Source: a virus
Length of the DNA stretch: 32,524 nt
Direction: 5' to 3' (one strand)
IMG/VR virus record: IMGVR_UViG_3300002835_000672
Coordinates: 1 to 32,524 of that record
The translations under genes were made by a program, and so were the position numbers. Below are positions 4,188-32,380 of this stretch, in pieces; positions within the stretch are counted from its first letter, which is position 1; each line of letters starts with the position of its first letter. The notes beneath the pieces are model-generated. The model made no database searches. It was not told the DNA's origin and was given only the letters and a program-made list of their open reading frames with translations.

Positions 4188-4490
4188 ATGGCACTCACGC
4201 CAGAGAAGAAAGTTAAGCTCAAAGTTGCTGCACTACTCAAGGAACGGGGGGTGTACTACTTTTCTCCCGCCACATTCGGTATGGGTCGCTCAGGCGTGCC
4301 CGACATCATCTGCTGTCACCTAGGTAAGTTCATAGGCGTTGAGTGCAAGGCAGGCGTAAACAAACCCACAGAGCTACAGAAGCGCGAGCTAGCTGCCATA
4401 GAGAAGGCTGGCGGCGTTGCGCTTGTCATTAACGAGACCAACCTAGACCTGCTGACGCAGGCGCTAAACACCATAGAACGAGGACACTAA
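4188..4490 (+). CDS. VRR-NUC domain nuclease
   Basis: The 100-aa product fits the VRR-NUC branch of the PD-(D/E)XK nucleases, small enzymes related to Holliday-junction resolvases. The active-site pattern is visible: GVPD with D39, then E52 and K54 in GVECKAG, then Q64. The length is normal for stand-alone phage members. The ATG at 4188 is preferred over the ATG at 4164 because AAGGGG lies correctly before it and 4164 would leave almost no leader after the promoter. A role in resolving or trimming replication intermediates is inferred from the family and from the replication genes downstream. Confidence 0.88.
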   Translation: MALTPEKKVKLKVAALLKERGVYYFSPATFGMGRSGVPDIICCHLGKFIGVECKAGVNKPTELQKRELAAIEKAGGVALVINETNLDLLTQALNTIERGH

Positions 4491-7235: not shown

Positions 7236-9139
7236 TGAACCTCGTAGTTGGGGATTTTGAAACGTACTGGTCACAGACCCACTCACTTACCAAGATGAGT
7301 CCCATCGAGTACGTGATGCACCCAGAGACAGAAATCATATCGCTGGCTATTAAATACGGTGACGAGCAGACGCAGGTTATCTTTGGCGAAGACTTAATCC
7401 GCGACCACCTTGAGGCGCAGGACTGGTCTGATGTCATGCTGGTGGCGCACAACATGTCTGCGTTTGATGCGATGATCTTTGCGTGGCGTTTTAAGATACA
7501 GCCCAAAGTGTGGGGGTGTACGCTGGCTATGGCTAGGCCGATACACAGTAAGACTACGGGTAACTCCTTAGCCAAGCTCGTTGCCCACTACGAGTTGGGT
7601 GAGAAAGACAACACCGCACTACTCAACACCAAGGGTAAACACCTCGCTGACTTTACTGCCGAAGAAATTGAAGCGATGCGCCAGTACAACTGCGACGACA
7701 CCGATCAGTGTTACGGCCTGTTCAACATCCTGATCAAACACTACAACGCAGTAGAGCTGTGGCAGATCGACGCTACGATACGTATGCTGGTTGAGCCTAA
7801 GTTTACACTGAACAAGCGGGTGCTAGATGGGGCGCTCAGTGACTCTCGGATACAGAAGCAGCAGGCGCTCGAGGCGATGGGGCGTATTCTGTACGGGGAC
7901 ACACTTGTAGACGTAGAGGAGGGTGTACGCAGTATGCTTGCATCAGCCCCGCAGTTTGCAAAACTGCTAACTACCCTTGGTGTGGACGTACCAATGAAGG
8001 CAAGCCCATCAGACCCAACTAAGCAGATACCGGCGCTGTCCAAGACAGACCAAGAGTTCCTAGACTTGCAAGAGCATGATGACCCTATAGTTTCTTTAGC
8101 GGCAAGCACCAGACTCGATGTAAAATCCACGTTGCTACAAACCCGACTGGAGTCTTTTATTGCTACAGGTAACAAGCTACGTGGAAGGCTACCAATACCC
8201 CTGCACTACTGCGGAGCCGACACAACGGGGCGGTGGTCGGGGTTCATGTACAACCCGCAGAACCTGCCGAGAATAAACCCGGATAAGCCTAAGCTGTCCG
8301 ACGCCCTGCGAAAGTCTATGGTTGCCCCGCCCGGGTACAAGGTTGTGGTGGCTGACCTGTCGGGTATCGAGCTGCGGGTGAACCACTTCTTGTGGAAGGT
8401 GCCAAGCTCCATGGCGCTGTACCAAGCGTCTCCGGACAAAGCCGATCTGTATAAGGACTTTGCTGCAAAGCTGTACGAGATAACTGAAGCCGAGGTAATA
8501 AAAACGCAGCGGCAGGTGGGTAAAGTAGCGCACTTAGGTCTGGGGTTTGGATCGGGTGCGGCTACATTCCAGAAGGTAGCCAAGCTGATGGGTGGGGTTG
8601 ACCTGACGCTCAAAGAGTCCGAGCAGATCACCTATCGTTGGCGGGACGAGTACGAAGAAATAGTCAGTGGCTGGAAAGCCTGTGAGGCTGCGCTGCCGTA
8701 CGTACTGGCTGGCGACAAAGTGTACGAAGTTGACCCTTGGGGGCTTATCACGACGGAGAAAGGTGCACTGGTGCTGCCCAGTGGCAGGCGTATTCGCTAC
8801 CCGGCGCTATCCGTAGAGAAGGTGGGCAAGCACAAAGAGTGGGAGTACGGTCAAGGCCGGCACCGCACCAAGATATATTCTGGAAAAATTGACGAGAACT
8901 GCGTTCAGGCATTGGCACGTGACATTATCGCGCAGAATGCGTACGACGTGTTCAAGGAGTTGAAGCTACGTCCGAGCTTGATGGTGCACGACGAGCTTGT
9001 TTACGTAGTCCCAGAGGAAGATGCGCAGCATGTACTGGACACTGTGCAGAGAATTATGCGGACTCCTCCCGTATGGTGGCCGGAGCTGATAACATGGTCA
9101 GAAGGTGACATCGCACAATCCTATGGGGAAGCTAAGTGA
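7235..9139 (+). CDS. polA: Family A DNA polymerase with 3'-5' exonuclease domain
   Basis: This is the phage replicative polymerase, 634 aa. The exonuclease domain shows DFET (residues 7-10), NMSAFD (73-78) and YNCDD (151-155). The polymerase domain shows motif A with D374 and E379 (ADLSGIELR), motif B RQVGKVAHLGLGFG (426-439) and motif C VHDE (584-587). There is no 5'-3' exonuclease domain, as usual for viral enzymes. The position matching E. coli Pol I Phe762 is Leu434, and the one matching Tyr766 is Phe438. The ATG at 7235 overlaps the previous TAA; a GTG at 7226 in the same frame is possible. The nuclease gene follows with a GTGA overlap. Confidence 0.97.
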   Translation: MNLVVGDFETYWSQTHSLTKMSPIEYVMHPETEIISLAIKYGDEQTQVIFGEDLIRDHLEAQDWSDVMLVAHNMSAFDAMIFAWRFKIQPKVWGCTLAMARPIHSKTTGNSLAKLVAHYELGEKDNTALLNTKGKHLADFTAEEIEAMRQYNCDDTDQCYGLFNILIKHYNAVELWQIDATIRMLVEPKFTLNKRVLDGALSDSRIQKQQALEAMGRILYGDTLVDVEEGVRSMLASAPQFAKLLTTLGVDVPMKASPSDPTKQIPALSKTDQEFLDLQEHDDPIVSLAASTRLDVKSTLLQTRLESFIATGNKLRGRLPIPLHYCGADTTGRWSGFMYNPQNLPRINPDKPKLSDALRKSMVAPPGYKVVVADLSGIELRVNHFLWKVPSSMALYQASPDKADLYKDFAAKLYEITEAEVIKTQRQVGKVAHLGLGFGSGAATFQKVAKLMGGVDLTLKESEQITYRWRDEYEEIVSGWKACEAALPYVLAGDKVYEVDPWGLITTEKGALVLPSGRRIRYPALSVEKVGKHKEWEYGQGRHRTKIYSGKIDENCVQALARDIIAQNAYDVFKELKLRPSLMVHDELVYVVPEEDAQHVLDTVQRIMRTPPVWWPELITWSEGDIAQSYGEAK

Positions 9140-9804
9140 AAAATCTAACATGGTCGTACAGCAGTCTGAAGACTTTTGAGCAGTGCCCGAAGAAGTATTA
9201 CCACCTCAAGGTTGCCAAAGACGTCAAGGACACCGGCAGTGCTGCGACGGTGTACGGCCAAGATGTGCACAAAGCTGCAGAAGACTTTATAGCTATAGGT
9301 ACGCCGATACCTGCTAAGTTTAAGTTTGTAGCCCCAGCACTGGAAGCACTAAAACAAATCCCCGGCGAGAAGCATTGTGAGCTTAAGCTGGCGGTGGCGT
9401 ACAACGATGCGGGGCATACGCCCACTAAGTTTTTTGCGAAGGACGTGTGGTGGCGGGGGGTTGCTGACCTGCTCATCATAGACGGCGACAAGGCGTTCAT
9501 GGCTGACTACAAGACCAGTAAAAACGCCAAGTACGCTGACACTACGCAGCTAGACATAATGGCCGCGGCGGTGTTCACCCATTACCCAGAGGTGAAAGAA
9601 ATAAAGTCCGCGCTCATATTCGTGGTGAGCAACGAGTTCGTTAAGAAAGTACATAGTAGCGAGCTGCACAAGTCCTACTACGCAGCGTTTGATGCCCCGC
9701 TTGAAAGACTGGCTGGTGCATATGAGAGTGACGTGTGGAACGCTGTGAGCGGCCCGCTGTGCGCATACTGCCCAGTAAAATCTTGTGTACATAATAGGAG
9801 ATAA
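9136..9804 (+). CDS. PD-(D/E)XK nuclease, Cas4/RecB type
   Basis: GTG start overlapping the polymerase stop (GTGA). The 222-aa product has the PD-(D/E)XK superfamily layout: opening TWSYSSLKTFEQCPKKYY, H45 in VHKAAEDF, D111 in RGVADLL, then D124 and K126 in ADYKTSK, and Q138 behind. Four cysteines, C17 near the start and C209, C212 and C217 at the end, match the iron-sulfur staple of Cas4 and AddB nucleases. It likely trims DNA ends during replication or recombination. The nuclease call is strong; the cluster is inferred from cysteine spacing. Confidence 0.9.
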   Translation: MKNLTWSYSSLKTFEQCPKKYYHLKVAKDVKDTGSAATVYGQDVHKAAEDFIAIGTPIPAKFKFVAPALEALKQIPGEKHCELKLAVAYNDAGHTPTKFFAKDVWWRGVADLLIIDGDKAFMADYKTSKNAKYADTTQLDIMAAAVFTHYPEVKEIKSALIFVVSNEFVKKVHSSELHKSYYAAFDAPLERLAGAYESDVWNAVSGPLCAYCPVKSCVHNRR

Positions 9805-16657: not shown

Positions 16658-19600
16658 TTACTGCGCTTCTTCCGGTGGGTTAGTGACGGCTCTGGATGGC
16701 ATAATTATCCTGTTCAAGTACGGAGCTACGGCGTCGCCTAGGTACAAGCCCTCATCCGTTATGCCGTCCCGTCGCAGCCTCTCTCCGAGTGAAGACATCA
16801 GATCATCCGTGGTTATGCCGTCAAAGAAGTTTTTGTAGTTGTACCTACGGACTTCCTGCAGTGCGTCGTCAAACTTGTTGCCGGCAACTATGGCTTGTCT
16901 GCTCTCCGGGCCGTACTCGTCAACAGCAGCATTTCTCTCTTTGAACGCTTTCTCGAAGCTGTCATACACCGCTACTTTTTCGGCTTTTATCTCGTCAATT
17001 AGCTTACGTGCAGCGAACGTCGATACTTGGCTTTCAGCTACTTCCGCAGAGCCAAAGCCCAAAGCCTGCCCCACTACCTTCCACCCGGTGTAGTACTCCT
17101 CTGGCTTAAGTACGTCCCCAGCGCGTGTCACGTTGCCGTCAGTAGCAAACCGCATAGCTTCCAGAGGCTCTCGTAGGAACGCAGGTGCCATCATCTCGAA
17201 CCCCCTGAGTATCTCCCCCTCATTAACCATGGTTTCGTAACCCTTGAGGAAATTGCGAGCTAAACTGGCACTTGGTCCGAACATAGTGTCGAACGCTAAG
17301 TTGACTGCCGTGTCCTCTAAACTATTGTCCTGCCGGCCGTAGCTGTTGTAGATCAAACCATCCAGAGACATAGACGATTGCACGTTCCAGTCAGTGAGTG
17401 CAGATGGAACTCCCAGCTCAACGCCACGCTGCAGCTGCTGAGCTTGCTCCGGAGTAAGCCCCATAAAGTTAGCCAAGCTTGAGCCCGGGCCGAAGTACTT
17501 ATCCAGCAGGTGATTCCTAAAGTACAGGTCTATGCTGCGCAGCCCCAGCGGGTTGCCAGCGTCATCTATGTCGTAGTACAGGTCAGCGTCTTCGTCGTCC
17601 AAATCGGGGCGTAGAGCCTCACGCAGCCCGTCAATCAACGCAACCATAGCGGTGTAGCCGAACATGCCAGTCACGCCGCCAAAAAACAGCCCCATGCCCA
17701 TGGTGTCCCAGAACATAACCGCGGCTTCTTTCTTCTCTGCCTTGGTCAGCCCCGATGCAGCAAACGCTTTGTAGAAGTTAGTTACTATGTGGGCAAGCGC
17801 CTGCACGCGGTAAGTCATGAACTGATAGCCCATACGACCGTACCATGTCTTCGCAAACAAAGGTTTGTTAAGGGCACTATAGTCAAACATCAGGGTTTTG
17901 GTAAGCTCTATGGCTTGCTCCGTCGCTGCTTCAATTGCAGCATCTCCTTTTTTGCCCTGTGCTAATTGTTTTTCGTAGGCCAGCTCAAAGGCAGACATGA
18001 AGAACACTTCACGGGAAACGCGTTCCGCGTGGTGTATTGGAGCGGATACAAAGTTGAGACCGGCCTGTGCCCCCTTGCTTATTGAAGTCCCACCGCCAGC
18101 TTGGCGAAGCTCAGACTCCAGTGCATCCGCAGAGCCAGCAAGATCAGAGGCCCTAGTGTCAATGAACAAGTTGCGCACGTCCGCTACGTCGTACGCTTTT
18201 TGAAGCGCGTCTTTTATAGGGCTCTCGGTCACGTACTTGGAGTTACGCATCGCCGCTTCGCCCTTCTCATCGACCACATTACCGGCCTCGTCGAGCTCCG
18301 TACGGCTTAACGCCCTAGCAGTTAGGAAGTTACCCATATACTTGGCAGCCATAGCCGCCGACTTGCCCGCACCGAATTTAGCGTGCAGCCCACCAAACCC
18401 AAACATAATTAACTGCGTGGGCTGAATGATTGCTGATCGCATAGAAGTGAGCATAAACAGGAACGACGCTTTGGTGCCCAGCCGAGAAGCGGCATCTGCT
18501 TTCTCTTCCATAGAACCCATGCTCGGTGGACTAAGTGTTACGGTAGCGCGTTCCGCCAAAATATCTATAATTGCTGTTTTTTCCCTTATGTTTTTATCGG
18601 TAGCAGGGATACCCTTTAGCGACTCTTTACCCGCAGCTATTTCGTTGCGTATTTGGTTGCCGTACTTAAGCCTTGCCAGCTGATTAACGAGCGTTGATTG
18701 GTTAATCGCAAACGACCGAAGAGCATCCTCTTCAAAACCAAGCACGCCTTTGCGGTTGACCACAGACTTACGTGCAGCCCCGGATGGCAGTGTCTGCAGG
18801 TACAGTTGGTATATGCTGTCTTTTAGGTCTTGCGCAGCGTCAGGTACGCCGGACTTCACTTTGTCTATACGCGCAAATAAGTCTGTTACTCTGGTGCTAT
18901 CGTTGAGCAGCAGATCGCGCATTGTCCCTGCTCTGTCTTCTTGATCCACTCGGGTTAGTAGATCAGTCGGGTACTGAAGCTCGTACTCGCGTATAAAGTC
19001 TTCGCGCTTACCATCAGTCTCAAACGACTTGTAAAACACACGCTTACCGGCAGAGTCCGTGACATTTAAGGCAAACCGGCCGGGGCGCGACAGGGGCGAG
19101 TACACTTTGAGTTTTAGCATCTCGGTGTAGTCCGCGACTATGTTAGCCATCAAAGCGCCTTTGTCCGACGAAGGGTCCGCCTCGGTGCCGGGTATCGCAG
19201 CATCTTTTCGTATGGTGTCTAGCAACAAAGTCACCGCTTCCTTTACATCTGCCCGGTACTTGTCCTGCACACGTGCGTAGAGGTCCAGTGCACCTTGCCC
19301 GTTAGGCGTAGCTTTTAACGCCGCAACGCGTTGAAATAACTCAGTTATGCTTTGGACCCTATCCGCTAATTCCTTTTTAGCTATGGTTAGCGCAGCTTTT
19401 TCTTCCCGGGTTCTGTTTTGCAATGGTATGCGGTCTATAGAACTGATGGTAAAACGAAGGTCACTTACTTCTGCGTCATTATCTATTGAGTTTTTCACGG
19501 ACAAGAAAGTCTTGCTGTCCACGTCGTACACGACGATATTGAACAGCGTGCTGTCGTTAAACAAATCCGTAAGCGGTTTAGCGTTAGCTGGATTTTTAGC

Positions 19601-22600
19601 TATGTACGCTTCCCAGTCTTTTGCAATTCTTGAGGACGCGTCTATCCGCTGACTTCGGTACGAGACCAAGTCCTGCATCAGTTTAGCCAGCCTGTCCGCC
19701 ATGCCTATCTGGTAATCTTTAGTGTTAGCCAGCGCCGTCAGCATGTTGGTGTCAAACGCCTGCAGCATAGCTCGGTACGCTCTTCCCGTTACGTACTTAC
19801 CAAAGTAGCGCATCTGTTCAATGGCAGCTTTGGGATCGCGCAGCAGTTGATACAGCGACTTCTGCTTGCCCAACACGGCGTTGATGCGGTTCTGTACCGC
19901 CTTTGCTTGCTGCAGTGTACTGACCTGCCTACGCAGATTCTTTGCCTGTGCTATTTCACTGGCTTTGTACGGCGTACCGTTAAGAGTTTCCCAAGCTACT
20001 ACGCCCGTCAAATCCAAAAGCTGCGTGAACGCGCTGTAGTCAGTGCTTGGCAACCCAATCATACGCGCAAGGTTTTTAGCCAAGTCGTTAAACGCGGAAA
20101 CAACCCCCGCTATAAACCCCCTGCTGACCGGGGGCATTCCAAGCAACATGCGTTGTAGTGCGGGTGTAGTTATCCCGTAGCTTAAAAATTCTTTCAAATC
20201 CGTAAAGTTTTCTGTTCTTTCGGCCGCGGCGTCCAACTCTGGAGTGGTTCTTCCAGCTAGTTTTAGCTGCGCGTACCGGTTCCCCGCCGACACCATAAGT
20301 TCCAGTAGCGCTGCTATTGCTTCACGCGAGCCTTCTGGCACGGAGTTTTTGTCTACGAAATAGCTGTCCAGCATATCTACGGTTACAGCGTGAACCCCCT
20401 CGTGCAACGCAGTGCGTGTGTCGCCGCCTTCGGTCGAGTGCAGATAAATGGTGCCACTTTTCGGGTCATATAGACCGGCGGTAACAACTTTGTCGCCTTT
20501 TAAAAAAATACTTCGTATGTTTTCTGGCACCGTGCTGGGGTCTGTGAACACCACGACTTTAGTACCAAGCGCGTTAGTCATGCGCTTTAGAATAAGCGCT
20601 AACCTTTTTTCAAACGGTGTGGCGTCGTTTAGCTTAGATATTGCGACAAACAGGCCCGAGCCAGTAGTTTCTTTCTGCGCCTCTTCCGGTAACACCGTAT
20701 TACTAATTAAAGTTTTATCTTTTTCAACAGCGTTTATTTTTTCACTGATTTCTTTTTGTAGTAGCTTTTCTTCCGCAGTATTAATTTCGGATTCAAGCTC
20801 GGCTTTAAGCTCAGCGTCGGTGACAGTGTCCGTTTCTGTTTGCGATTCGACGGTAGCTGGCTTCGCCCGCTCTGCACGTGTAGGTATAGCCGGCGCCCTA
20901 CCAAACTGCTCCGCATCTATCCGCGCTTCAAGTGCAGCGGCGGCAAACTCAGCTTGAGGAATATTGGGGTCTTTTAGCGTTTCTCTGGCCGCGGCGTACG
21001 CTGCACTGCCACTTAGTTTTGGATTGTTGGCTATCTGCATTGCCTTGACCAAAAGTTCTTTACGCTTAGCTTTCAGCTTTTCCAACTCTTCTCTGGCAGC
21101 GTTAAACACGCCTTGCTTTTTATTTGCTGCCCGTTCGGCTTTGGCAGGCGACATCCCTGCAGCTATATTAGCTTCCACCTCTTGTGCGCGTGCCGCTTCT
21201 GGGTTGGCTGCGTACGCGTCAAACGCTTCGGGTGTTGTAAACACACCAGCGTACACCTTCTTACTTAGTATCTGTTGCGCACGGTCATACAAACTTTTTT
21301 TGAAGTACTTTGAAACTCTTTTGCTGCGCTGGCGTGCGGCGTCCCCCGCCCTACTAAGCTGCTTGACCTTTTCAACAACTTCTGGAGGTCTTTTTAAAGG
21401 GATGCGCCCACGGGTGGCTCCTGTAGGTGCTGCGGGTAGAGCAACGGTAAGCGATTCTACGCCGGGCATAGCGGCTACTTGCTCAAGCTCAGTTTCTTCA
21501 AGCAGCCCCATTTGGTTTATTGCATCTTCTTCCGCAACGGTTATGGCGGCTTGTTCTGTGACGGGCTCTACGGCCGGTGTCGGAGCTACTTGTTCTGTGA
21601 CGGGCTCTACGGCCGGTGTCGGAGCTACTTGTTCTGTGACGGGCTCTACGGCCGGTGCGGCAGCGGCTTGTTCAGCTGCTACTCGTGCAGCAATACTTTC
21701 ACCGGCGAGTCTTGCGGCTTCGGCTTCATCGGCTTCAAACTGAGCCTGTTCAGTGGCACGGGCAGTGGGGGCTTCTTGCTGCGCTCGTAACTGTGCGTTT
21801 AGAGCGTCCATCATTGCGCGGCCGTACGCCGCCCCAGCTTCTTGGCCGTACGTTTCAGCCAACTCTTGCCGCTTTTCGAGTACCGTATTTCTGTCTATTT
21901 CACCTTGCGAGTCGTTTTGTACTTCCGCAGCTATCACCGGTGCCCACTCACGCGCAGCAGGCGGCGCAGTGTCGTCGATGGTTAGGGGCGCAACAGCTTC
22001 TTCCGGTGCAGATGGGGGTATGTCTTCAAGAAACGCAGCCAACGCAGCTTCAGCGTCTGCTTGGCGTTGCTCCTCGGTAACCGCGGCAGGTTCTTCTTCA
22101 AGCCCCGCTTCAGCAGCTCTGGCAGCTCTAGCAGCTTGGCGCTCAGCAATCTCAGTATCCGCACGCTGCGCTTCAACCGCACCCACACCACCACCGAGTA
22201 GTGCACCGATACCACCTTCAAGTGCGGCGCTACCAACAACGCCACGCATCAACGGCGTAGCCATTCCTTCGCGGTTTAACGCTAAGTTCTGAGCAAACTG
22301 TTCCTGTCCGGCCTGCGCCGCTTCGGGCACTGCTTCGGACGCTGCGGTTCTGCCTAGGTTGCTAAGCACTCCGCGCTCCAGTGTTTCTTGCGTAGCAGCT
22401 TCCGTTACTGCAGTTCTAGCTACGGCCGGGGAAACGCCTTCCTGTATTAACCTGTCCCCAAGTTTTTTCTGGATAAGCGCTGGCTGCACACCAAACCTAG
22501 TAGCGGCGTACCCAAGCACTCCGCCCAGTGCAATCATGTCCAAGTTGTCGCCTGTGTAAGCCTGCGCTTCTTCAGCAGCCTGCCTAGCTTCTTCCGGACT

Positions 22601-23185
22601 CTTACCTTGCTCAACCAAAGCTTCGTTAACGGCGTCGAATACCGCGCTCTTCACCAGACCCACGCCTGAAGCTGCGCCATACCCAATAAGCCCCGGTATA
22701 CCAGCTGCAACGCCAGCAACAACGCCCGGTACTATAGTTCCAGCACCTTGGGACAGGAAGTCTATCGGTGACACCATGAACGCTCTGGCAGCGGCACGTA
22801 GCTGCGGACCTACACCCATGTCCTCGGCTTCGGACATAATGCGAGCAACTTCTTGCTGGTCTGCCTTAGCCTGCGCAGATAAAAGGCTTTGTAAGTACCC
22901 TTCAACGCCACGTATGGACTCAGATACAGGGTTAGTAGCCCCGGCTATGTCCGTCAGCATTCGCGTGCCCGTCGCTATACCACTGAGCAAGTTTATCGGT
23001 ACGTCTGCTATTTCTCGGAATATATTGGACTCAACTTCTTGTGGTTGAGCTTGTGCAACGGGTGCGGTGGCAGCGGGGGCGTACTCAGAGAACAGCGCCT
23101 CAAGCTCTTGCTCAGTGGGAGGAGAGTCACCACTAAGTTTTAACTTAACCCCCGTAGTTGGGTCGGTAACTAGATATTCCGGCAT
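16658..23185 (-). CDS. Giant virion or ejection protein with HExxH metallopeptidase motif
   Basis: At 2175 aa this is the largest gene here and the last of the late operon. It opens with YLVTDPTTGVKLKLSGD, a start seen in large phage internal virion proteins, followed by Gly/Ala-rich hydrophobic stretches (about residues 149-182 and 325-340) and an Ala/Glu-rich middle. HEGVH (928-932) with E999 in DLKEFLS suggests a zinc metallopeptidase. About residues 1773-1795 read KPLFAKTWYGRMGYQF, like the PLxRFG region of phage polyvalent proteins, followed by a hydrophobic segment near 1820-1855. It is probably packaged and injected with the DNA. It has no ribosome-binding site and overlaps its upstream gene as TAATG. 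Confidence 0.8.
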   Translation of the reverse strand: MPEYLVTDPTTGVKLKLSGDSPPTEQELEALFSEYAPAATAPVAQAQPQEVESNIFREIADVPINLLSGIATGTRMLTDIAGATNPVSESIRGVEGYLQSLLSAQAKADQQEVARIMSEAEDMGVGPQLRAAARAFMVSPIDFLSQGAGTIVPGVVAGVAAGIPGLIGYGAASGVGLVKSAVFDAVNEALVEQGKSPEEARQAAEEAQAYTGDNLDMIALGGVLGYAATRFGVQPALIQKKLGDRLIQEGVSPAVARTAVTEAATQETLERGVLSNLGRTAASEAVPEAAQAGQEQFAQNLALNREGMATPLMRGVVGSAALEGGIGALLGGGVGAVEAQRADTEIAERQAARAARAAEAGLEEEPAAVTEEQRQADAEAALAAFLEDIPPSAPEEAVAPLTIDDTAPPAAREWAPVIAAEVQNDSQGEIDRNTVLEKRQELAETYGQEAGAAYGRAMMDALNAQLRAQQEAPTARATEQAQFEADEAEAARLAGESIAARVAAEQAAAAPAVEPVTEQVAPTPAVEPVTEQVAPTPAVEPVTEQAAITVAEEDAINQMGLLEETELEQVAAMPGVESLTVALPAAPTGATRGRIPLKRPPEVVEKVKQLSRAGDAARQRSKRVSKYFKKSLYDRAQQILSKKVYAGVFTTPEAFDAYAANPEAARAQEVEANIAAGMSPAKAERAANKKQGVFNAAREELEKLKAKRKELLVKAMQIANNPKLSGSAAYAAARETLKDPNIPQAEFAAAALEARIDAEQFGRAPAIPTRAERAKPATVESQTETDTVTDAELKAELESEINTAEEKLLQKEISEKINAVEKDKTLISNTVLPEEAQKETTGSGLFVAISKLNDATPFEKRLALILKRMTNALGTKVVVFTDPSTVPENIRSIFLKGDKVVTAGLYDPKSGTIYLHSTEGGDTRTALHEGVHAVTVDMLDSYFVDKNSVPEGSREAIAALLELMVSAGNRYAQLKLAGRTTPELDAAAERTENFTDLKEFLSYGITTPALQRMLLGMPPVSRGFIAGVVSAFNDLAKNLARMIGLPSTDYSAFTQLLDLTGVVAWETLNGTPYKASEIAQAKNLRRQVSTLQQAKAVQNRINAVLGKQKSLYQLLRDPKAAIEQMRYFGKYVTGRAYRAMLQAFDTNMLTALANTKDYQIGMADRLAKLMQDLVSYRSQRIDASSRIAKDWEAYIAKNPANAKPLTDLFNDSTLFNIVVYDVDSKTFLSVKNSIDNDAEVSDLRFTISSIDRIPLQNRTREEKAALTIAKKELADRVQSITELFQRVAALKATPNGQGALDLYARVQDKYRADVKEAVTLLLDTIRKDAAIPGTEADPSSDKGALMANIVADYTEMLKLKVYSPLSRPGRFALNVTDSAGKRVFYKSFETDGKREDFIREYELQYPTDLLTRVDQEDRAGTMRDLLLNDSTRVTDLFARIDKVKSGVPDAAQDLKDSIYQLYLQTLPSGAARKSVVNRKGVLGFEEDALRSFAINQSTLVNQLARLKYGNQIRNEIAAGKESLKGIPATDKNIREKTAIIDILAERATVTLSPPSMGSMEEKADAASRLGTKASFLFMLTSMRSAIIQPTQLIMFGFGGLHAKFGAGKSAAMAAKYMGNFLTARALSRTELDEAGNVVDEKGEAAMRNSKYVTESPIKDALQKAYDVADVRNLFIDTRASDLAGSADALESELRQAGGGTSISKGAQAGLNFVSAPIHHAERVSREVFFMSAFELAYEKQLAQGKKGDAAIEAATEQAIELTKTLMFDYSALNKPLFAKTWYGRMGYQFMTYRVQALAHIVTNFYKAFAASGLTKAEKKEAAVMFWDTMGMGLFFGGVTGMFGYTAMVALIDGLREALRPDLDDEDADLYYDIDDAGNPLGLRSIDLYFRNHLLDKYFGPGSSLANFMGLTPEQAQQLQRGVELGVPSALTDWNVQSSMSLDGLIYNSYGRQDNSLEDTAVNLAFDTMFGPSASLARNFLKGYETMVNEGEILRGFEMMAPAFLREPLEAMRFATDGNVTRAGDVLKPEEYYTGWKVVGQALGFGSAEVAESQVSTFAARKLIDEIKAEKVAVYDSFEKAFKERNAAVDEYGPESRQAIVAGNKFDDALQEVRRYNYKNFFDGITTDDLMSSLGERLRRDGITDEGLYLGDAVAPYLNRIIMPSRAVTNPPEEAQ
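21551..21657 (-). repeat. Three 39-bp tandem repeats inside the giant gene
   Basis: Units start at 21551, 21590 and 21629 and are nearly identical; the third is partial. Each encodes 13 residues of the type EPVTEQVAPTPAV, extending a disordered Ala/Pro/Glu linker at about residues 509-545. Copy number may vary between related phages. Confidence 0.9.
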
Positions 23186-25005: not shown

Positions 25006-25962
25006 TTACGGCCCTATACCGGCTAGTTTGTCCCGTTCCTGCTTCTGGCGAGCTGCTTCTAGTATTAACGCCTGTTGCGCATTAGCCTTTTGATTAGCCC
25101 CAGCCGTGTTAGTGTTTGAAGGGAACAGCCGACCCAACATGTCGTATATGTCGTTAGCACCGCCGGCAATATCCTGCAGGGGGCTTGTGCTGGTGTAGTT
25201 GTACGCCTGTGTTTCCAACGGGAGCCCTTGTAATAGCGACTGCATGAACTGCAACTGACGCTGTGGGTAGTCCCGCTCAAACTCAAACTGCGCCAAGTCC
25301 GCACCTATACCCTGCTGCTCAATACCACGCTGCTCGGCGCCACCGGCTCGCTGCGCCCCTAAGACATCAAGACCTAACCGGCTGGCTTGCTGCGCCGCCG
25401 CCATTTGACGGGCCTGTTCAGTATTAAACTGCCCTTGAGCTTGGGTAAACGCTTCGTTGTACCCGCGACCGGTAATATCGGCCATACGATCCAACAACCC
25501 ACGCTGCAACTCAGCTTCAGCTACACCCTGACGTGATCCACCGTATGCACCGGCTTTACCGTACTGGCTCTGCAGTGCTTGCTGTTGCATCTCGCTTTGT
25601 CTGCGTGCAGCCGCATACTGCGGGTCTAAGACCGACTGCAAATACGGAGTCATGTACTGCTGAACCACATTACCAGAAGCGGGTGTAGTGACACCGGGAA
25701 TCCCAGCAGCTGCTTGAGTCGCAGTGGGTGGAGTGTACGCCGCACCGGTAAACGACATCGGGTTATACGCCATTGTGGAGGCATTAGGAACTTGCAACGC
25801 CCCCAGCCCCTGAAATGCCTGCGTTTGCAACGCAGATGGGCCGGCGCTTAAAGGTCCTTCATAGGCTGTGTACGGCAGGTTTGATGCCGCTGCGCCTCGA
25901 CCCAACATCTGGGTAACATAGGGCCCTGCAAAACTGGATAGGGAGGACTCTTCAGCTCTCAT
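25006..25962 (-). CDS. Probable DNA-ejection or internal virion protein, 318 aa
   Basis: A GAGG site precedes the ATG. The central region has a pattern common to marine podophage virion proteins: QQYMTPYLQSVLDPQ, then ARRQSEMQQQALQSQYG and AGAYGGSRQGVAEAE, followed by a Gln/Ala-rich helix (about 165-215). The rest is low in charge and Gly/Ala-rich. It resembles the short helical proteins that leave the capsid with the DNA. The pattern is recognised, the function inferred. Confidence 0.72.
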   Translation of the reverse strand: MRAEESSLSSFAGPYVTQMLGRGAAASNLPYTAYEGPLSAGPSALQTQAFQGLGALQVPNASTMAYNPMSFTGAAYTPPTATQAAAGIPGVTTPASGNVVQQYMTPYLQSVLDPQYAAARRQSEMQQQALQSQYGKAGAYGGSRQGVAEAELQRGLLDRMADITGRGYNEAFTQAQGQFNTEQARQMAAAQQASRLGLDVLGAQRAGGAEQRGIEQQGIGADLAQFEFERDYPQRQLQFMQSLLQGLPLETQAYNYTSTSPLQDIAGGANDIYDMLGRLFPSNTNTAGANQKANAQQALILEAARQKQERDKLAGIGP

Positions 25963-25969
25963 ATTAACC

Positions 25970-27259
25970 TCACACCGGTATAAACTTGTTAGGGGCTATC
26001 TTACGCCCTTGCTCCTGACGCCCAGTACGCGCTTGTCGCACCCGGTCCATCATGGAGTACAGTTGTTTAGCGCCGGCGTCAGAGTTACCGTTGCCCAAGT
26101 GACTAACCACGTCAGCAGGCACTACGAACTCCCCGTCGGATAATGCAGCTTGTTGCGTACCGTCAATAGTAGCAGGTATCTGGTCTGCCATGCCATCAGT
26201 AGCACCGCCTAGGTAGTACCCACGGGACTGCGGTGCTGCAACGTTACCGCCTCTGGCGTAACCAAAACCTTTGTAATCCGCTTCCACCATTTTTGGATCA
26301 TACCCTGTAACTCTAGCAACCTGCGCTGGGCTAACTCCGTACTTTTTCATGGCAGCGGCTATAGTGCGGTGTGCATCCACCCCCGCTCCACCGTACTGGT
26401 CGTACGTACTTTTGATAAAGTTCAAAACGTCGGTATCACTAAACTTACCAAAAGCTGTGTAGTCCGCAAGAATTTCTTCCGGCTTGAAACCTGTTATTTT
26501 GGACACTTGCGCCACCGGTATGCCCTTTTCTGCTATATCGTTAGCAATTGCCCTGTGCGCCGCTACTCTATCTCCCCCAGCTTGCTGAACCCTAAAGTCT
26601 ATTAACTCCTTAACCGACGCGTCCGTGTAGTTTTTAACTGGAGCCGCTGTGTTTATCTTAAAATCTGTAGTAGTAGTAGTTACTTTATTCGCAGCGTCAT
26701 CACCAACGACATCACCCGCGTCATCACCAACGACATCACCCGCGTCATCACCCGCCGAGCTAATCCCCGTTCCGCTAAATAAATTACCAAATAGGTACTG
26801 AACTACTTCTTTAGGTAACGAATTAATAATGCCCTGCGCTTTGGCTAGTCGCTGCTCTTGAGTTTCTGGGGTTTCTGGGGTTTCTGGGGTTTTAGTAGTC
26901 ACTGGGACGTTGACTGGGCTGATTCTTTCAGCGGCCATTGTTTCGCCCGTTGGGGTGTAGGTTGTATTCGTAAAGTATTGTCGTCCCGCACTGCCCGGTA
27001 TACGCGGCTCTCCCGTAGGCATAGTGGTAGAAAAGGCATTTGGTACAAGGGTTCTGTTGATGCCAAACTCAGGGATACCGCCCGTGTAGCCCGTGACGCG
27101 CTCCGCACCGCTACCGGCACCTATAAACTCTCCCACTTTACTATCCGGTTTTACGGCACCATATACAAGAGCGCCAAGGCCCGCGGTGGAGGCAACTTTG
27201 CTAAGGTCCAAATTACCACCGGGCATAAAGTAGTCGCTTACAGCTTTTCTAATGGACAT
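25970..27259 (-). CDS. Virion-associated protein with an internal domain duplication, 429 aa
   Basis: The C-terminal 80 residues match a conserved ending of aquatic phage proteins: YYLGGATDGMADQIPA, then LSDGEFVVPADVVSHLGN and MMDRVRQARTG. Residues 214-272 and 276-333 are two copies of one helical unit, each with AHR-I near its start, ITGF or VTGY, and a closing DY-FG. The linker before them (about 125-190) holds short ETP and GDDAGDVV repeats. It lies six bases after the previous gene and GAGGGGG precedes its ATG. It is probably a minor structural protein. Confidence 0.72.
   Translation of the reverse strand: MSIRKAVSDYFMPGGNLDLSKVASTAGLGALVYGAVKPDSKVGEFIGAGSGAERVTGYTGGIPEFGINRTLVPNAFSTTMPTGEPRIPGSAGRQYFTNTTYTPTGETMAAERISPVNVPVTTKTPETPETPETQEQRLAKAQGIINSLPKEVVQYLFGNLFSGTGISSAGDDAGDVVGDDAGDVVGDDAANKVTTTTTDFKINTAAPVKNYTDASVKELIDFRVQQAGGDRVAAHRAIANDIAEKGIPVAQVSKITGFKPEEILADYTAFGKFSDTDVLNFIKSTYDQYGGAGVDAHRTIAAAMKKYGVSPAQVARVTGYDPKMVEADYKGFGYARGGNVAAPQSRGYYLGGATDGMADQIPATIDGTQQAALSDGEFVVPADVVSHLGNGNSDAGAKQLYSMMDRVRQARTGRQEQGRKIAPNKFIPV
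26694..26888 (-). repeat. Two short tandem repeat tracts in the 429-aa gene
   Basis: A 24-bp unit occurs at 26694-26717 and 26718-26741 with a partial third copy, encoding GDDAGDVV. A 9-bp unit, GTTTCTGGG on the + strand, occurs three times at 26862-26888, encoding ETP. Both keep the reading frame and lie in the linker before the duplicated domain. Confidence 0.88.
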
Positions 27260-27265
27260 GGCGGG

Positions 27266-28978
27266 TTACCCCCTCAACAATTTAATAAGTTCGTCAGTGG
27301 CATTATACCGATTTACGCTGCCACCACCATATAACTCGGTCTCTTCGGCGCCCGCGTCCCTTTCAGCCAATATACGCATAATGTTATCTATCAGCGACGC
27401 GTTCAAATCGTACGGTGTGCCTATGTCCGCAAGACCTGCCTGCTCCGTGCTGACTGAGTACATGTCTTGTGTACTCTGAGGTTGCTGTATTGGCGTAGCG
27501 GGACTCCCGGGGCTACCGGGGCTACCGGAGCTACCGAGGTCGGGCGCAGGAGACGTTCTTAGCGGCGGACCATCCGGGCTTACCCGCTTTGCTACTTTAA
27601 CTTCTTCCAAGGCCGCCGGCGTTTTTGCTACTTTAACTTCTTCCAAGGCCGGCGGCGTCTTTGCTACAGTATCTTTGTTAATTACCGTCTTAGTTTTATC
27701 GGCTTCTGTTTGTGCTACAGTACCTGTGTTAACCACCGTCTTAGTTTTATCGGCTTCTGTTTTTACTTCGGCGCCAGTGATTGTGTCGTTGCCTACGGCG
27801 CCAGTGATTGTGTCGTTGCCTACGGCGCCAGTGATTGTGTCGTTTTTGACTGTAGCGGCTCTATTAACGTCCTCTTGCGTTTTGTACCTTTCATCCAGTT
27901 CCGCAACGTTTTGATTAACCCCAAGAACAACTTTGGTCGTAGCATCTATAAGTCCTTGAACGTCGCCCTGAATCGCTGCCGAAATTGCACCGGCGTTAGT
28001 CCCGGTAGCCTTACCTATTTCTTCAAGAATTACAACTTTAATGATTTCCCTAAGATTGGGGTCGGATTGGCCGGGGGAGCTCCGGGAAAATACTTTTTGC
28101 AGTACGCCGTCTATAAACGGATTGCCGGTGTACACGCCTACGGGAGCGCCACTGGTTGGCATACTACCTACGATTGTTGGGGTAGCGCTACCCGTGGGCT
28201 TTCCAATGACGATGGTGCCGGATTGGTTTGTTGGGTTTAACACAACAAGTGAAGGAAGCGGCGCGTTAATGAGTTCAAACAGAGCATTTGTGCCCCTACC
28301 AATCACGTTACCTATGCCGCCAATAATATTACCTGCGCCGGTAACGGCACCCTGTATCGGGGCGGGCAACAAATCAAATAGGCTACCCGTAGCCGCACCG
28401 GGAAGCGCAACTGTACTTGGTCCAGTGGCCGTGGTTGGCGCTGCCGCACCGGGTGTAGCTGCCTGTGCCATCGAAGTAATGTATTGGTTCCCCCCCGGAG
28501 GTGTAGTGACAGCGGGTGTGGTTCTGTCTATCGGTGCCTTCCCGCCAGAGTCCCCGGGTATGTTAATGGTGGGTTGACCTATAAAAACAGGGGTGGGTGG
28601 CGCCAAAAAAGACTCAGGGGATGGCGCCCCAGCGGGTACCGAAACCCCATACCGCGACATAAGCTCGTCAAAAGCGGTCTTTCTCTGTGTGAGCGACGTA
28701 GTTTCAGGATTGTAAGTCGCGTTTACGTAGCCAATAACATCCTCAAACGTTGGGGCTCTTCCCAGCAACTCTGTTAAGTTAGGGTCGTAAAGCCCTACTC
28801 CTCCGCCGACTGGGCTAACATTTGTAGAACCTATGTCGCCTAAAAGCTCTTGAATAAAATCAGTGGGGCTGTAGCCGCCTAAGCGTTGACCAATGACTGT
28901 GGTTGACCCTATACCAAAATAAGGATCGACGTCCCCGCCAGCGTCAAAGTGAATTTTCCCATCTTCATCAATTCTCAT
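27266..28978 (-). CDS. Repeat-rich virion protein, 570 aa
   Basis: GAGGTGAG precedes the ATG. The N-terminal 140 residues look ordered (DPYFGIGSTTVIGQRL and FEDVIGYVNATYNPETT), followed by a Pro/Ala/Gly/Thr-rich disordered zone with hydrophobic Gly-rich patches near residue 210. Residues 378-493 are almost entirely tandem repeats of four sizes. The last 60 residues (LIDNIMRILAER) are helical and ordered. No family is recognised. The layout of ordered ends joined by a repeat linker fits a minor tail or head-tail protein in this structural operon. Confidence 0.7.
   Translation of the reverse strand: MRIDEDGKIHFDAGGDVDPYFGIGSTTVIGQRLGGYSPTDFIQELLGDIGSTNVSPVGGGVGLYDPNLTELLGRAPTFEDVIGYVNATYNPETTSLTQRKTAFDELMSRYGVSVPAGAPSPESFLAPPTPVFIGQPTINIPGDSGGKAPIDRTTPAVTTPPGGNQYITSMAQAATPGAAAPTTATGPSTVALPGAATGSLFDLLPAPIQGAVTGAGNIIGGIGNVIGRGTNALFELINAPLPSLVVLNPTNQSGTIVIGKPTGSATPTIVGSMPTSGAPVGVYTGNPFIDGVLQKVFSRSSPGQSDPNLREIIKVVILEEIGKATGTNAGAISAAIQGDVQGLIDATTKVVLGVNQNVAELDERYKTQEDVNRAATVKNDTITGAVGNDTITGAVGNDTITGAEVKTEADKTKTVVNTGTVAQTEADKTKTVINKDTVAKTPPALEEVKVAKTPAALEEVKVAKRVSPDGPPLRTSPAPDLGSSGSPGSPGSPATPIQQPQSTQDMYSVSTEQAGLADIGTPYDLNASLIDNIMRILAERDAGAEETELYGGGSVNRYNATDELIKLLRG
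27501..27844 (-). repeat. Cluster of four different tandem repeat arrays
   Basis: From left to right: 9-bp units around 27501-27539 (Gly-Ser-Pro), 36-bp units from 27588 (two and a part, ALEEVKVAK type), 51-bp units at 27666-27716 and 27717-27767 (TEADKTKT type) and 27-bp units at 27770-27796, 27797-27823 and 27824-27844 (GNDTITGAV type). All periods are multiples of three, so copy changes preserve the frame. Confidence 0.92.
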
Positions 28979-29644: not shown

Positions 29645-31510
29645 TTAACGTCTGCCGTCAGGGCGGATATCTAGTCTGGGTTTACCTAGTTTCCACGTCA
29701 CTCCAAGGCCAGTAGACTCAATCTTTACCGCTATCTGCCGGCCACGTATGCGCACGAACACCTGCCCAGTAAACTCTTCAATCGGCACTGTGGTGATCCG
29801 CGTTATTGTAGTGGTGCTGTTACCACCAACGGACAGGGGGTTGTAGTAGCCTGAGCCAGAGTTCTGCAGAGGCAGTATTGTCATCGTAGCCGACGGCGCG
29901 TCCGCGGTAGACCCCACAAAGGTCATGTCCGGCAGAATGCGGTTAATCATCATAAACCGGTCGCCCTCGTCGATATCAAACTCGCCCGAAGTAATCGTCG
30001 CTATAATCGGATTTGCGGTACCCAGCTCGTTGCAGTCAACGCCAAACTCTTGGGAAACTAGGTTGTTACTGTAAGTAGCCGCAATCGGGTTGTCTCTGAG
30101 GTCAGCATCTATCCACGCTGAACGACTCAGGTTGCCGTAGAACCAGATGTTCTCAACGTAGTTGTACACCACATACCGGTTGTTCTGCGTGGAGCCGGCA
30201 GAAGGGTAGAACCACCACACCTCATCAAACTGCTCGTTGGTACCGCATATCACCTGATTGAACTGATTTTTGTTAATGTCGTTGAACACGTAGCTACGCA
30301 GTGTGCAGGGGAGCGTCTTAACCGTACCGTCGTAGTAGTAAAACTTGTCTATGCCCATCCAGTACGCAACGTTGTTTGCGTAGATGGTACCGTTCGGGCT
30401 GACCACGGTTATGTTAGAACCAAGCAGCTGCGCACCCCACACTTCCGGAGCACCTAGATACTGCAGACCGTACACGGCCGAGTCAGTCCACACCAACACT
30501 TCTTGACGCGCTTGGCGTACAGCAACTATCTCGGTGCCTTGGGACAGACGTAGGCTACCGGCTTGATTAAGTGCCGTCGGTGTCCAGTTAGCTACGTCCT
30601 CTTGGTCAGACCAGCGGATCAACATGGGGTCCAGCGGGGCGGCGCCCAGCTCGTTGGCTCCGAAACAGAACGCAAACCGGAAGATGTCAGATACAAACGC
30701 AATGTTGGCGATCACCGGCACATTGGACGCTCCGCCCAGTGACGATACGTACACCGCTCTCGTAGTAACTCCAGTCGAAGCATCCCAGTAAAACGGAGCG
30801 CTGCCACGGTACGTAAAGAACAAGTCCTCACCGAAGTTAGACTGACTCCATATCCGCATCGGGGCTAGTGTTACCCCGCCAAAGCCCCACGTACCAAAAC
30901 CCCAGCGACCTGCACTCCACCCGGTAAAGGGCACTTCAATCTCGTTGCCTATAGGTATCTGGTAAGCCCCAACGACGGACGCTCCACCGTCTCCGGAATC
31001 CGAAGAATTTGCCGTGGCTGTAGCTACAAATGTGTAGTTGTCGTCGTCGATGATGGAGGCAATGACGTACTCTCGGTTTAGCACCGTAGCCGTAATGTTA
31101 CCGCCCAGACTTACCGCACCCGAGAACGTAACAAAGTCGCCCTGCTGTGCGCCGTGATCCACATCGGTAGCCGTGATAACAGCGGAACCAGTAGTTGCAT
31201 CAAACTCTACATCCCCAGCAGCTGTGGTTAAGCGAATGGGGGTAACGTCAAAGTACTGCCCACCACGCTCAATGTAGTATTTGAGGTTAGTGCCGACCGC
31301 TAACAGGTTCTGCCCAGAGAGCGTAGCCCAGTTAGTTAATGATCTAGCGACACCCAAATACGTATTTGCAGAAAGCCGCTGCCACCCACCTATTTTCTCG
31401 GGCAGGCCGAAACGGAAACGGACTTTATCCGTCTCGAACCATGTACCCTCCGCAGCGTACCGCGTACTTTCTCGGTTAACGCCGGGTTTTAAGGTGAGTG
31501 ACTTAAGCAT
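29645..31510 (-). CDS. P22 gp10-like packaged-DNA stabilisation protein
   Basis: The 621-aa product has the signature of tail stabilisation proteins of the P22 gp10 family: LKPGVNRESTRYAAEG and FETDKVRFRFGLPEKIGGW at the start, SDQEDVANWTP in the middle, and beta-propeller repeats with many Trp and Tyr. In P22 this protein plugs the portal channel beneath the needle. It is longer than P22 gp10 (472 aa), partly through an inserted beta domain at about residues 100-170 (VDHGAQQGDFVTFSGA). It supports a podovirus-like tail. Confidence 0.85.
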   Translation of the reverse strand: MLKSLTLKPGVNRESTRYAAEGTWFETDKVRFRFGLPEKIGGWQRLSANTYLGVARSLTNWATLSGQNLLAVGTNLKYYIERGGQYFDVTPIRLTTAAGDVEFDATTGSAVITATDVDHGAQQGDFVTFSGAVSLGGNITATVLNREYVIASIIDDDNYTFVATATANSSDSGDGGASVVGAYQIPIGNEIEVPFTGWSAGRWGFGTWGFGGVTLAPMRIWSQSNFGEDLFFTYRGSAPFYWDASTGVTTRAVYVSSLGGASNVPVIANIAFVSDIFRFAFCFGANELGAAPLDPMLIRWSDQEDVANWTPTALNQAGSLRLSQGTEIVAVRQARQEVLVWTDSAVYGLQYLGAPEVWGAQLLGSNITVVSPNGTIYANNVAYWMGIDKFYYYDGTVKTLPCTLRSYVFNDINKNQFNQVICGTNEQFDEVWWFYPSAGSTQNNRYVVYNYVENIWFYGNLSRSAWIDADLRDNPIAATYSNNLVSQEFGVDCNELGTANPIIATITSGEFDIDEGDRFMMINRILPDMTFVGSTADAPSATMTILPLQNSGSGYYNPLSVGGNSTTTITRITTVPIEEFTGQVFVRIRGRQIAVKIESTGLGVTWKLGKPRLDIRPDGRR

Positions 31511-31707
31511 TATCTGCCACGTGGTGCAGATTTACCGCCCGCAGCACCGCCTTTCTTAGTAGCACCACCAGCTGCATAGCCTTTCTTAGCCATACCACCA
31601 GCTGCCATCTTGCCTTTGCCATCCGCAGCAAACGCCGGGACTTTCTTACCGTCCTTTTCAACCATCTTCATTGCGCCGCCTGCTGCCATACCCTTAGCTT
31701 TCATCAT
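31510..31707 (-). CDS. Tiny Lys/Gly/Ala-rich basic protein, histone-like
   Basis: Of two possible starts, the ATG at 31707 is chosen because GGAGAG lies about ten bases before it; an ATG at 31725 has no such site and would add six residues. The 65-aa peptide is extremely basic, has almost no hydrophobic core and repeats AAGGxxKKG units, like the tail of histone H1. It overlaps the preceding gene by 14 bases and the next by one, so it is translationally embedded in the structural operon. It may neutralise packaged DNA or be a low-complexity virion peptide; no function is proven. Confidence 0.7.
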   Translation of the reverse strand: MMKAKGMAAGGAMKMVEKDGKKVPAFAADGKGKMAAGGMAKKGYAAGGATKKGGAAGGKSAPRGR

Positions 31708-32380
31708 TTTCTTCGCTCTCCGCATACAGATTGTTAAAAGTTACATTGGGGTCCAGATACGAATCGTCTTGCTCTGCGCAGTGTATCCACTGACTCGGTT
31801 TAAAGTCCGGTGCGCCTTCACCTGTTACCCAGTAAGCTGGGCTAGTGACACGGACTCTGTTGTTCGGTAAGGCTACAATATTTCCTGTCCACTTGCCAGC
31901 ATCCGTCAGGATGAGGACGTGTGTCTGCTTGTGCTGTGCAGGGTCCTCGGAGACCTCGCTCTCGGCGTAGTCAACCGTAAACAAATAGCGACCCTTGAAG
32001 AACTCGTTGTTGATCTTGCACATCCACTGGGACGGTTTAGCCCTGTCAATGGAGATAATGCTGTGGTGGTAAGAACTACAATCCCACGGCTGCACAAAGT
32101 GCGTTTCCATCCTTTCCGGCCACTCTTCCAGTGGTATGTCGCCAACCAAGGCTGTGATGGGCATACGTGCCCACATCGCCCCGCCGTGTACGTTAGGCTG
32201 GCTACCATCGTCTGCTTCGCACCCGGTGAAGATCAACTGAAAAGACAGACACCTGTCGGGCATGGTGGTAACAGCAACTGCCAGCGCATGGACGTACTCG
32301 CCGTGGTAGTTTTGATGACCGTTAGTGAACTCTTTGCGCACCCAGCACTTGAAGTACGGGATGTTGCTTATAAGATACAT
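31694..32380 (-). CDS. Conserved phage protein of the late operon, 228 aa
   Basis: The ATG follows the lysozyme stop with no gap (TAAATG) and a run of five G upstream. The product has a pattern I know from marine and cyanophage proteins: NIPYFKCWVRKEF, then HGEYVHALAVAV, LPITAL-like and QPWDCSSYHH segments, a GRYLFTVDYAES core and a LPNNRVRVTSPAYW strand near the end. The family is conserved but uncharacterised. It is beta-rich without enzyme motifs. Its place between endolysin and structural genes suggests a virion or assembly role. Confidence 0.7.
   Translation of the reverse strand: MYLISNIPYFKCWVRKEFTNGHQNYHGEYVHALAVAVTTMPDRCLSFQLIFTGCEADDGSQPNVHGGAMWARMPITALVGDIPLEEWPERMETHFVQPWDCSSYHHSIISIDRAKPSQWMCKINNEFFKGRYLFTVDYAESEVSEDPAQHKQTHVLILTDAGKWTGNIVALPNNRVRVTSPAYWVTGEGAPDFKPSQWIHCAEQDDSYLDPNVTFNNLYAESEENDES

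What the first reader, a model, noticed from the sequence alone, without database searches (positions are those of the whole stretch)
27501..27844. Four adjoining tandem arrays of different period in one virion gene
Within 345 bp there are repeats of 9, 36, 51 and 27 bp, all in frame and all nearly perfect. Four independent expansions side by side are hard to explain by chance. The segment may be under selection to change length, or a local mutator process such as slippage or repeat-templated copying may act here. Shorter arrays in the neighbouring genes (26694-26888 and 21551-21657) show that the tendency extends through the late operon.
Basis: seen in the sequence. Interest (0 to 1): 0.58.

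Follow-up and report, generated by a model that had tools for sequence, protein, structure and literature searches.

The report
Phage gene of ever-changing repeats
A gene in a water-borne phage carries four neighbouring in-frame repeat arrays; near-identical relatives have different copy numbers, and distant relatives carry different arrays at the same spot, so this stretch is a natural hotspot of protein-length change.

Summary
Gene 27266-28978 (minus strand, 570 aa) holds arrays of 9, 36, 51 and 27 bp, all in frame. None of 2,000 codon shuffles gave more than one array.

Five IMG/VR contigs about 99% identical to the window settle the main question. The 27-bp array has 3 or 6 copies. The 51-bp array has 2 copies, or 1 in two different hybrid forms. 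The 36-bp array is constant in all five and the 9-bp array in the four that reach it. Every indel against the window lies in this gene.

Among 147 related loci, the gene at this position has arrays in 102 of 124, against 0/141, 24/147 (0.33% of bases), 1/41 and 1/25 in neighbours; only the next gene (25/44) shares the trend. All 243 arrays have periods divisible by 3. Units are mostly unrelated between clades.

Best reading: a disordered linker in a probable DNA-ejection-cassette protein, where slippage or unequal recombination keeps making and erasing in-frame arrays. No special mutator is needed. Selection for length change is possible but not shown. It is a strong case of a known kind (coding VNTR) in an undescribed place.

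The parts
27266..28978 (-). hypervariable 570-aa gene at the '570 position' between a needle-like gene and p429
   Evidence: ORF; no PHROG match; Pfam only PF00353 on the 27-bp array
27769..27844 (-). 27-bp array, 2.8 copies, encodes NDTITGAVG (RTX-like nonapeptide); 5.8 copies in L003 and L005
   Evidence: Pfam PF00353 25 bits, cut-off 23
27662..27762 (-). 51-bp array, 2 copies here; 1 copy in L004 (VVNTGTVAK form) and in L003/L005 (VINKDTVAK form)
27587..27667 (-). 36-bp array, 2.2 copies, constant in all five close relatives
27499..27536 (-). 9-bp array, 4.2 copies, SPG (collagen-like) triplets; constant in the four close relatives that reach it
27266..27463 (-). C-terminal stretch (MYSVSTEQAGLADI...YGGGSVNR...ELIKLLRG) that recurs after the arrays in many relatives
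   Evidence: in the 58 of 61 complete genes with arrays the last array ends 67-406 aa (median 88) before the end of the gene
28103..28249 (-). best conserved central block (LVVLNPTN...PTIVGSMPTSGAPVGVYTGNPFIDGVLQ)
   Evidence: invariant columns of alignment A2
28379..28458 (-). divergent allelic patch with a 21-bp indel (28389-28409), shared by L001, L002 and L004
   Evidence: four-gamete conflicts with sites further on
28296..28296 (-). site of an extra 21-bp tandem copy in L004
28987..29643 (-). 218-aa needle-like protein: N-terminal helix plus TNF/C1q/BclA-like jelly roll; no arrays in relatives
29645..31510 (-). 621-aa tail 'stabilization protein' homologue (conserved anchor gene)
25970..27259 (-). 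429-aa next gene, the only other array-rich gene (arrays 26694-26755 and 26862-26892)
   Evidence: fused to the 570-position gene in 14 loci
25006..25962 (-). 318-aa gene, PHROG 'DNA ejection protein'
   Evidence: 1.4e-07
16658..23185 (-). 2175-aa DarB-like protein with a 39-bp array 21550-21673
   Evidence: shares an N-terminal domain with the 570-position gene of four relatives

Best explanation
The four arrays are the current state of a flexible, Thr/Pro/Gly-rich linker in a fast-evolving protein encoded between the tail needle and the DNA-ejection genes of a P22-like (short-tailed) phage lineage. Replication slippage or unequal recombination between short repeats keeps creating, lengthening, shortening and replacing arrays there. 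Selection keeps only in-frame changes and broadly preserves the type of peptide, but not its exact sequence or length. Homologous recombination with other alleles, often with a break right at the start of the gene, swaps larger pieces of the same gene. Shown: copy-number alleles, in-frame periods, location, clade-wide recurrence, synonymous excess between copies, mosaic alleles. Inferred: slippage/unequal recombination as the mutational step; disorder of the linker; that the protein is a virion, probably ejected, protein; that the linker acts as a length-tolerant spacer.
For: Copy number: L003/L005 have 6 nonapeptides where window/L001/L002/L004 have 3; the 51-bp array is reduced to one copy in two different ways (L004 and L003/L005), i.e. 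at least two separate events at about 99% genome identity. All indels between the window and L001-L005 fall in this gene (0 elsewhere in 2,635 to 11,971 bp compared per contig). Other groups: 75 bp = five 15-bp units between L099 and L100 with 0 SNPs in 2,516 flanking bp; 42+12 bp between L163 and L139; 3 bp in L160/L161 and L059/L062. Recurrence: arrays in 102 of 124 genes at this position, 12.85% of bases against 1.26% after local codon shuffling; 61 of 124 have two or more arrays; 243 of 243 periods divisible by 3; closed gene lengths 226-1303 aa against 615-629 for p621. 209 arrays of period 12 or more fall into 96 similarity groups, 57 of them single. Single-base codon differences between copies: 407 synonymous, 296 not (0.58 against 0.295 neutral), arrays rich in T, P, G and poor in L, F, Y, M, R. 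Arrays lie mostly at 60-90% of the gene. Breaks at the gene start: L030/L033 99.5% over 5,157 bp then nothing; L015/L026 98.5% up to the gene, homology again near its end. Cassette: DNA ejection PHROG and DarB-like PHROG downstream; DarB-like N-terminal domain inside the 570-position gene of 4 of 124 loci, E 1e-8 to 1e-24. AlphaFold gives pLDDT about 30 over the arrays (shallow alignment, whole model poor).
Against: 10 of 15 near-identical groups show no array length difference, e.g. L030/L031/L032/L034 (my grouping of its rows), so turnover is not fast everywhere. The 36- and 9-bp arrays do not vary among the close relatives. No reads were examined, and short-read assemblies can miscount repeats; 33 of 63 contigs that end inside this gene have an array within 30 bp of the end. 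Virion location is unproven; the gene has no PHROG or useful Pfam match. Whole-gene replacement is also what receptor-facing genes do.
Confidence: 0.62

Rival explanations
1. Diversifying selection: the protein is exposed to the host (receptor- or envelope-contacting appendage) and repeat change plus allele swapping are kept because they alter infection, as in metaviromic islands.
For: Near-identical phages carry quite different versions of this gene, with breaks at its start. The neighbour is a C1q/TNF-like protein. Marine phage islands are rich in host-recognition genes and also held three internal virion proteins (PMC3909814, passages).
Against: Single-base codon differences between repeat copies are biased to synonymous; in L001 10 of 15 gene SNPs outside the array columns are synonymous. 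No adhesin, spike or fibre match. The C1q-like neighbour itself is conserved.
Confidence: 0.25
2. Contingency switch: slippage acts as a programmed dial of length (or on/off) within a phage population.
For: Perfect 27-bp units with 3 or 6 copies in near-identical genomes.
Against: 243 of 243 periods are multiples of three, so no on/off frameshift. The same allele recurs in three contigs (window, L001, L002) and many groups are invariant.
Confidence: 0.06
3. Assembly artefact: repeat collapse or chimeras in short-read metagenomes produce the length differences.
For: Contigs often end in the arrays (33 of 63); all length alleles come from metagenome contigs.
Against: Same alleles in independent contigs, with unit-exact differences that carry distinct hybrid units. 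Arrays also in isolate genomes CRP-901 and CRP-902 and in the record of DSL-LC04.
Confidence: 0.05
4. A local mutator (for example a diversity-generating retroelement or other templated copying) acts on this gene.
For: Excess of SNPs and indels in this gene over the rest of the genome.
Against: SNPs come in shared blocks that fail the four-gamete test, i.e. recombination. Changes are not adenine-specific. No reverse transcriptase among the 19 window proteins scanned with Pfam (the record is incomplete).
Confidence: 0.03

Closest known systems
Coding variable-number tandem repeats (intragenic minisatellites)
   Same: In-frame arrays, whole-unit length alleles between close relatives
   Different: Here units are replaced by unrelated units from clade to clade at one fixed place in a phage gene
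Metaviromic islands of marine phages (Mizuno et al. 2014, PMC3909814; passages read)
   Same: A hypervariable gene between near-identical flanks; [quoted passage not shown]
   Different: That paper measured read recruitment; here the variation is resolved to repeat copy number and gene-edge replacement, in a gene outside the fibres
Podovirus ejection proteins (review PMC8954989; passages read)
   Same: Gene order by the needle and ejection genes; the review says ejection genes are more variable than other assembly genes and mosaic
   Different: The single 'repeat' match in that text concerns bootstrap repeats, so tandem arrays are not treated there; packaging of this protein is untested
BACON domain tandem repeats of crAss-like phages (PMC6949934; abstract and outline read)
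   Same: Tandem repeats recurring in tail-linked phage proteins
   Different: Those are whole folded domains; these are short 1- to 48-residue units (periods 3-144 bp), mostly of low complexity
RTX nonapeptide repeats (PF00353)
   Same: The 27-bp unit encodes GAVGNDTIT, above Pfam's cut-off
   Different: Only 2 of 76 members match; the second glycine of the motif (motif recalled) is alanine; no secretion context

Membership tests
Coding VNTR (intragenic minisatellite) | head-to-tail units in one reading frame | tested here: met
   243 of 243 periods divisible by 3
Coding VNTR (intragenic minisatellite) | copy-number differences between close relatives | tested here: met
Coding VNTR (intragenic minisatellite) | length change within one growing population | not testable with these tools
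   no reads or cultures available
Phase-variable contingency locus | repeat change switches the reading frame | tested here: not met
   all periods are multiples of three
Diversity-generating retroelement target | reverse transcriptase nearby and adenine-directed substitutions | tested here: not met
   none among 19 proteins scanned with Pfam; mixed substitutions; the record is a partial genome
Podovirus ejection protein | encoded in the needle/ejection gene cassette | tested here: met
Podovirus ejection protein | sequence or domain relation to known ejected proteins | tested here: inconclusive
   DarB-like domain in the 570-position gene of 4 of 124 loci, not in the window's copy
Podovirus ejection protein | protein is in the virion and enters the cell | not testable with these tools
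   needs proteomics
RTX nonapeptide repeat | Pfam PF00353 above its cut-off | tested here: met
   25 bits, cut-off 23; best E 7e-10 among members
RTX nonapeptide repeat | calcium-bound beta roll | not testable with these tools
   model confidence over the array about 30
Tail fibre / receptor-binding protein | match to a known fibre, spike or adhesin family | tested here: not met

The most novel reading that the evidence does not exclude
A phage lineage uses one ejection-cassette gene as an evolutionary length dial: an obligatory disordered tether whose arrays are continually reborn from unrelated units, so that phages can match the reach of the ejected machinery to the host envelope, with near-identical phages in one water body carrying different lengths as a standing polymorphism.
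Probability: 0.18. Interest if true: 0.75.

Novelty: new variant of a known kind. Interest (0 to 1): 0.5.

Why it matters
It gives a natural, repeated experiment on how repeat arrays are born, grow and die in a coding gene: same position, same lineage, dozens of unrelated unit sequences, with alleles in genomes that hardly differ elsewhere. It marks a gene that short-read viromes break at, and it raises a testable question about how length-tolerant the injection machinery of short-tailed phages is. My eight searches of the open library listed no paper whose title or abstract start describes this locus; that is a limited search.

Tried and rejected
Rejected: frameshifting phase switch (periods all divisible by three); retroelement mutagenesis; pure assembly error; clade-wide conservation of the particular units (96 groups among 209 arrays). 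Led nowhere: the AlphaFold model of the 570-aa protein (mean pLDDT 37.5) was too poor for a fold search; PHROG and Pfam scans of 76 family members gave only scattered weak families; a second flank pattern returned only four contigs already held; of two Pelagibacter/uncultured relatives (L092, L093) only one weak array lay in the cassette genes listed. A shared junction word GTAGCAMAR occurs four times in the window, all at boundaries of the 36- and 51-bp units; its count alone is not significant (12 of 100 shuffles reach it), so it is only a hint that short shared words seed the arrays. L111/L112 array mismatches lie at a contig end and were not counted as change; the 207-bp gap of L059/L062 is at a contig end and was ignored. 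Searches used a first set of 70 genes; the pooled set replaces it.

Full report
What is there. The window is a 32.5-kb virus record. Its late half, read on the minus strand, runs: tail stabilization protein homologue (31510-29645; PHROG virion structural protein; 39% identical to Phage DSL-LC04), a 218-aa needle-like protein, the 570-aa gene of the finding, a 429-aa gene, a 318-aa gene (PHROG 'DNA ejection protein'), a 599-aa gene and a 2175-aa DarB-like protein. The 218-aa protein models as an N-terminal helix plus a jelly roll whose best PDB matches are TNF-ligand, BclA and C1q domains, with the cyanophage A4 portal-tail complex among the hits; the Sf6 needle ends in such a TNF-like knob (PMC3741392, abstract and passages). 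So the finding sits between the needle and the ejection genes of a P22-like tail and ejection module. P22-like here is by gene order and these matches; no full phylogeny was made.

The observation. TRF finds the four arrays (9, 36, 51, 27 bp), all in frame in gene 27266-28978. The 36-, 51- and 27-bp arrays run on from one another; the 9-bp one stands 50 bp away. Codon shuffling does not produce this: of 2,000 shuffles, 15 had one array and none had two.

Alleles in near-identical genomes. Five IMG/VR contigs encode the protein. The window aligns with them over 4.4 to 13.7 kb at 98.7-99.7%. In the gene, the window, L001 and L002 have nonapeptide x3 and the 17-aa unit x2; L004 has x3 and x1; L003 and L005 have x6 and x1. 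The single 17-aa unit left in L004 (VVNTGTVAK) differs from that in L003/L005 (VINKDTVAK), so the array changed at least twice, with different break points. L004 also has an extra 21-bp tandem copy further upstream in the gene. All indels against the window are in this gene; outside it there are 0 indels and 6 SNPs in 11,971 bp for L001, 3 in 4,228 for L002, 1 in 2,635 for L003, 2 in 9,205 for L004 and 1 in 3,546 for L005. Gene SNPs are 15, 16, 28, 13 and 21; part of those of L003, L004 and L005 come from misaligned array columns. Outside the array columns they are 15, 16, 7, 9 and 0, counted by codon as synonymous/nonsynonymous 10/5, 9/7, 5/2, 4/5 and 0/0. They come in blocks that fail the four-gamete test: alleles recombine. 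Against fast change: the 36-bp array is constant in all five and the 9-bp array in the four contigs that reach it.

The clade-wide picture. 147 non-redundant loci with the stabilization gene were pooled. The '570-position' gene was taken as the longest ORF of at least 100 aa starting near the end of the needle-like gene; it was found in 124 loci. This rule picks a wrong, inserted ORF at least once (L022). Arrays (TRF score 50 or more) were found in 102 of 124 of these genes (12.85% of bases), 25 of 44 p429, 24 of 147 p621 (0.33%), 1 of 41 p318, 1 of 25 p599 and 0 of 141 of the needle-like gene. After shuffling codons within 40-codon windows the 570-position genes still gave 27.2 of 124 with an array (1.26% of bases), because their composition is itself repetitive. 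All 243 arrays had a period divisible by three; 61 of 124 genes had two or more arrays. So several arrays side by side is typical for this gene, not an accident of the window. Of the complete genes, 58 of 61 had arrays, mostly at 60-90% of the gene, ending at least 67 residues before the C terminus. 209 arrays of period 12 or more fall into 96 similarity groups: the place is conserved, the units are not.

Change in other groups. Among pairs with flanks at least 99% identical and alignable genes, my grouping of the rows gives 15 groups; 5 have array length differences (window group; L099/L100/L101, 75 bp; L163 against L139/L140/L175, 42+12 bp; L160/L161, 3 bp; L059/L062, 3 bp) and 10 have none, some of these over short truncated arrays. 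No indel occurs in the flanking p621+p218 stretch of any of these pairs (details). In further pairs the whole gene differs although the flanks match: L030/L033 (99.5% over 5,157 bp, ending 8 bp before the gene), L170/L172 (99.8% over 3,699 bp, ending 6 bp into the gene), L015/L026 (98.5% up to the gene; homology resumes near its end).

Constraint on the peptide. Comparing neighbouring copies codon by codon in 161 distinct arrays, single-base differences were synonymous in 407 cases and not in 296 (0.58 against 0.295 expected); array residues are enriched in Cys, Thr, Pro and Gly and depleted in Leu, Phe, Tyr, Met and Arg. The peptide therefore matters somewhat, but as a type. The structure model of the protein is poor overall (mean pLDDT 37.5), with fair confidence only in a helical patch near residues 66-128 and about 30 over the arrays; this fits disorder but does not prove it.

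What the protein is. No PHROG matched the window's copy; the only Pfam hit is the RTX nonapeptide model on the 27-bp array, matched by 2 of 76 family members. Three lines point to the ejection cassette: position; fusion with p429 in 14 loci; and a DarB-like N-terminal domain inside the 570-position gene of L081, L126, L134 and L135. DarB of phage P1 is packed in the head and believed to enter the cell (PMC9024508, abstract and passages). [quoted passage not shown] This remains an inference.

Mechanism. Slippage or unequal exchange between units explains unit-exact changes and hybrid units; frame filtering explains 243 of 243; weak constraint on composition explains the synonymous excess; and allele recombination explains the blocks and gene-edge breaks. 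No mutator is needed. Whether selection favours length change, or merely tolerates it, cannot be told from sequence. Metaviromic islands show that phages keep hypervariable genes between near-identical flanks, including a few internal virion proteins whose variation that paper called obscure (PMC3909814, passages). The present gene may be one explanation of such cases.

Limits. All length alleles come from metagenome contigs; no reads were examined; 33 of the 63 contigs that end inside the gene have an array within 30 bp of the end, so copy numbers of long arrays may be underestimates. Isolate phages CRP-901 and CRP-902 do carry arrays in the cassette, different ones, and DSL-LC04 has a 51-bp x4.5 array in its neighbouring 'tail tape measure' gene. 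The sampling sites of the IMG/VR contigs were not available, so independence of samples is assumed from their differing data-set numbers.

Noticed in passing
window 27769-27844; L003: The 27-bp unit encodes GAVGNDTIT, an RTX-like nonapeptide above Pfam's cut-off; 2 of 76 members match, best E 7e-10. Slippage may be building an RTX-like stretch from scratch.
   Followed up: partly
window 21550-21673: 39-bp x3.2 array (EPVTEQVAPTPAV) in the DarB-like 2175-aa gene; same copy number in L010 and L004.
   Followed up: partly
window 26694-26755 and 26862-26892: 24/12-bp (GDDAGDVV) and 9-bp (PETPETPET) arrays in p429; no indel in L001 or L004.
   Followed up: partly
window 31510-31725 (minus): Small 71-aa Ala/Gly/Lys-rich ORF with a 30-bp x1.9 array, next to the stabilization gene.
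   Followed up: no
L081, L126, L134, L135 (570-position gene): A domain of roughly 200-290 aa related to the N terminus of the DarB-like protein sits inside the 570-position gene of these phages.
   Followed up: partly
L022 3985-4665: An extra ORF of 226 aa, not alignable with the 570-position gene of its near relative L023, stands at the junction between the needle-like gene and the variable gene.
   Followed up: no
window 4164-4490 and 9136-9804: A weak Hjc-resolvase-like match (just under cut-off) and a PD-(D/E)XK nuclease: possible recombination enzymes of this phage.
   Followed up: no
L090 and L177 (CRP-901, CRP-902): Two isolate phages of one host carry different arrays in the ejection cassette (117 bp x1.9 against 36 bp x2.5 and 54 bp x3.3, in neighbouring genes).
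   Followed up: partly
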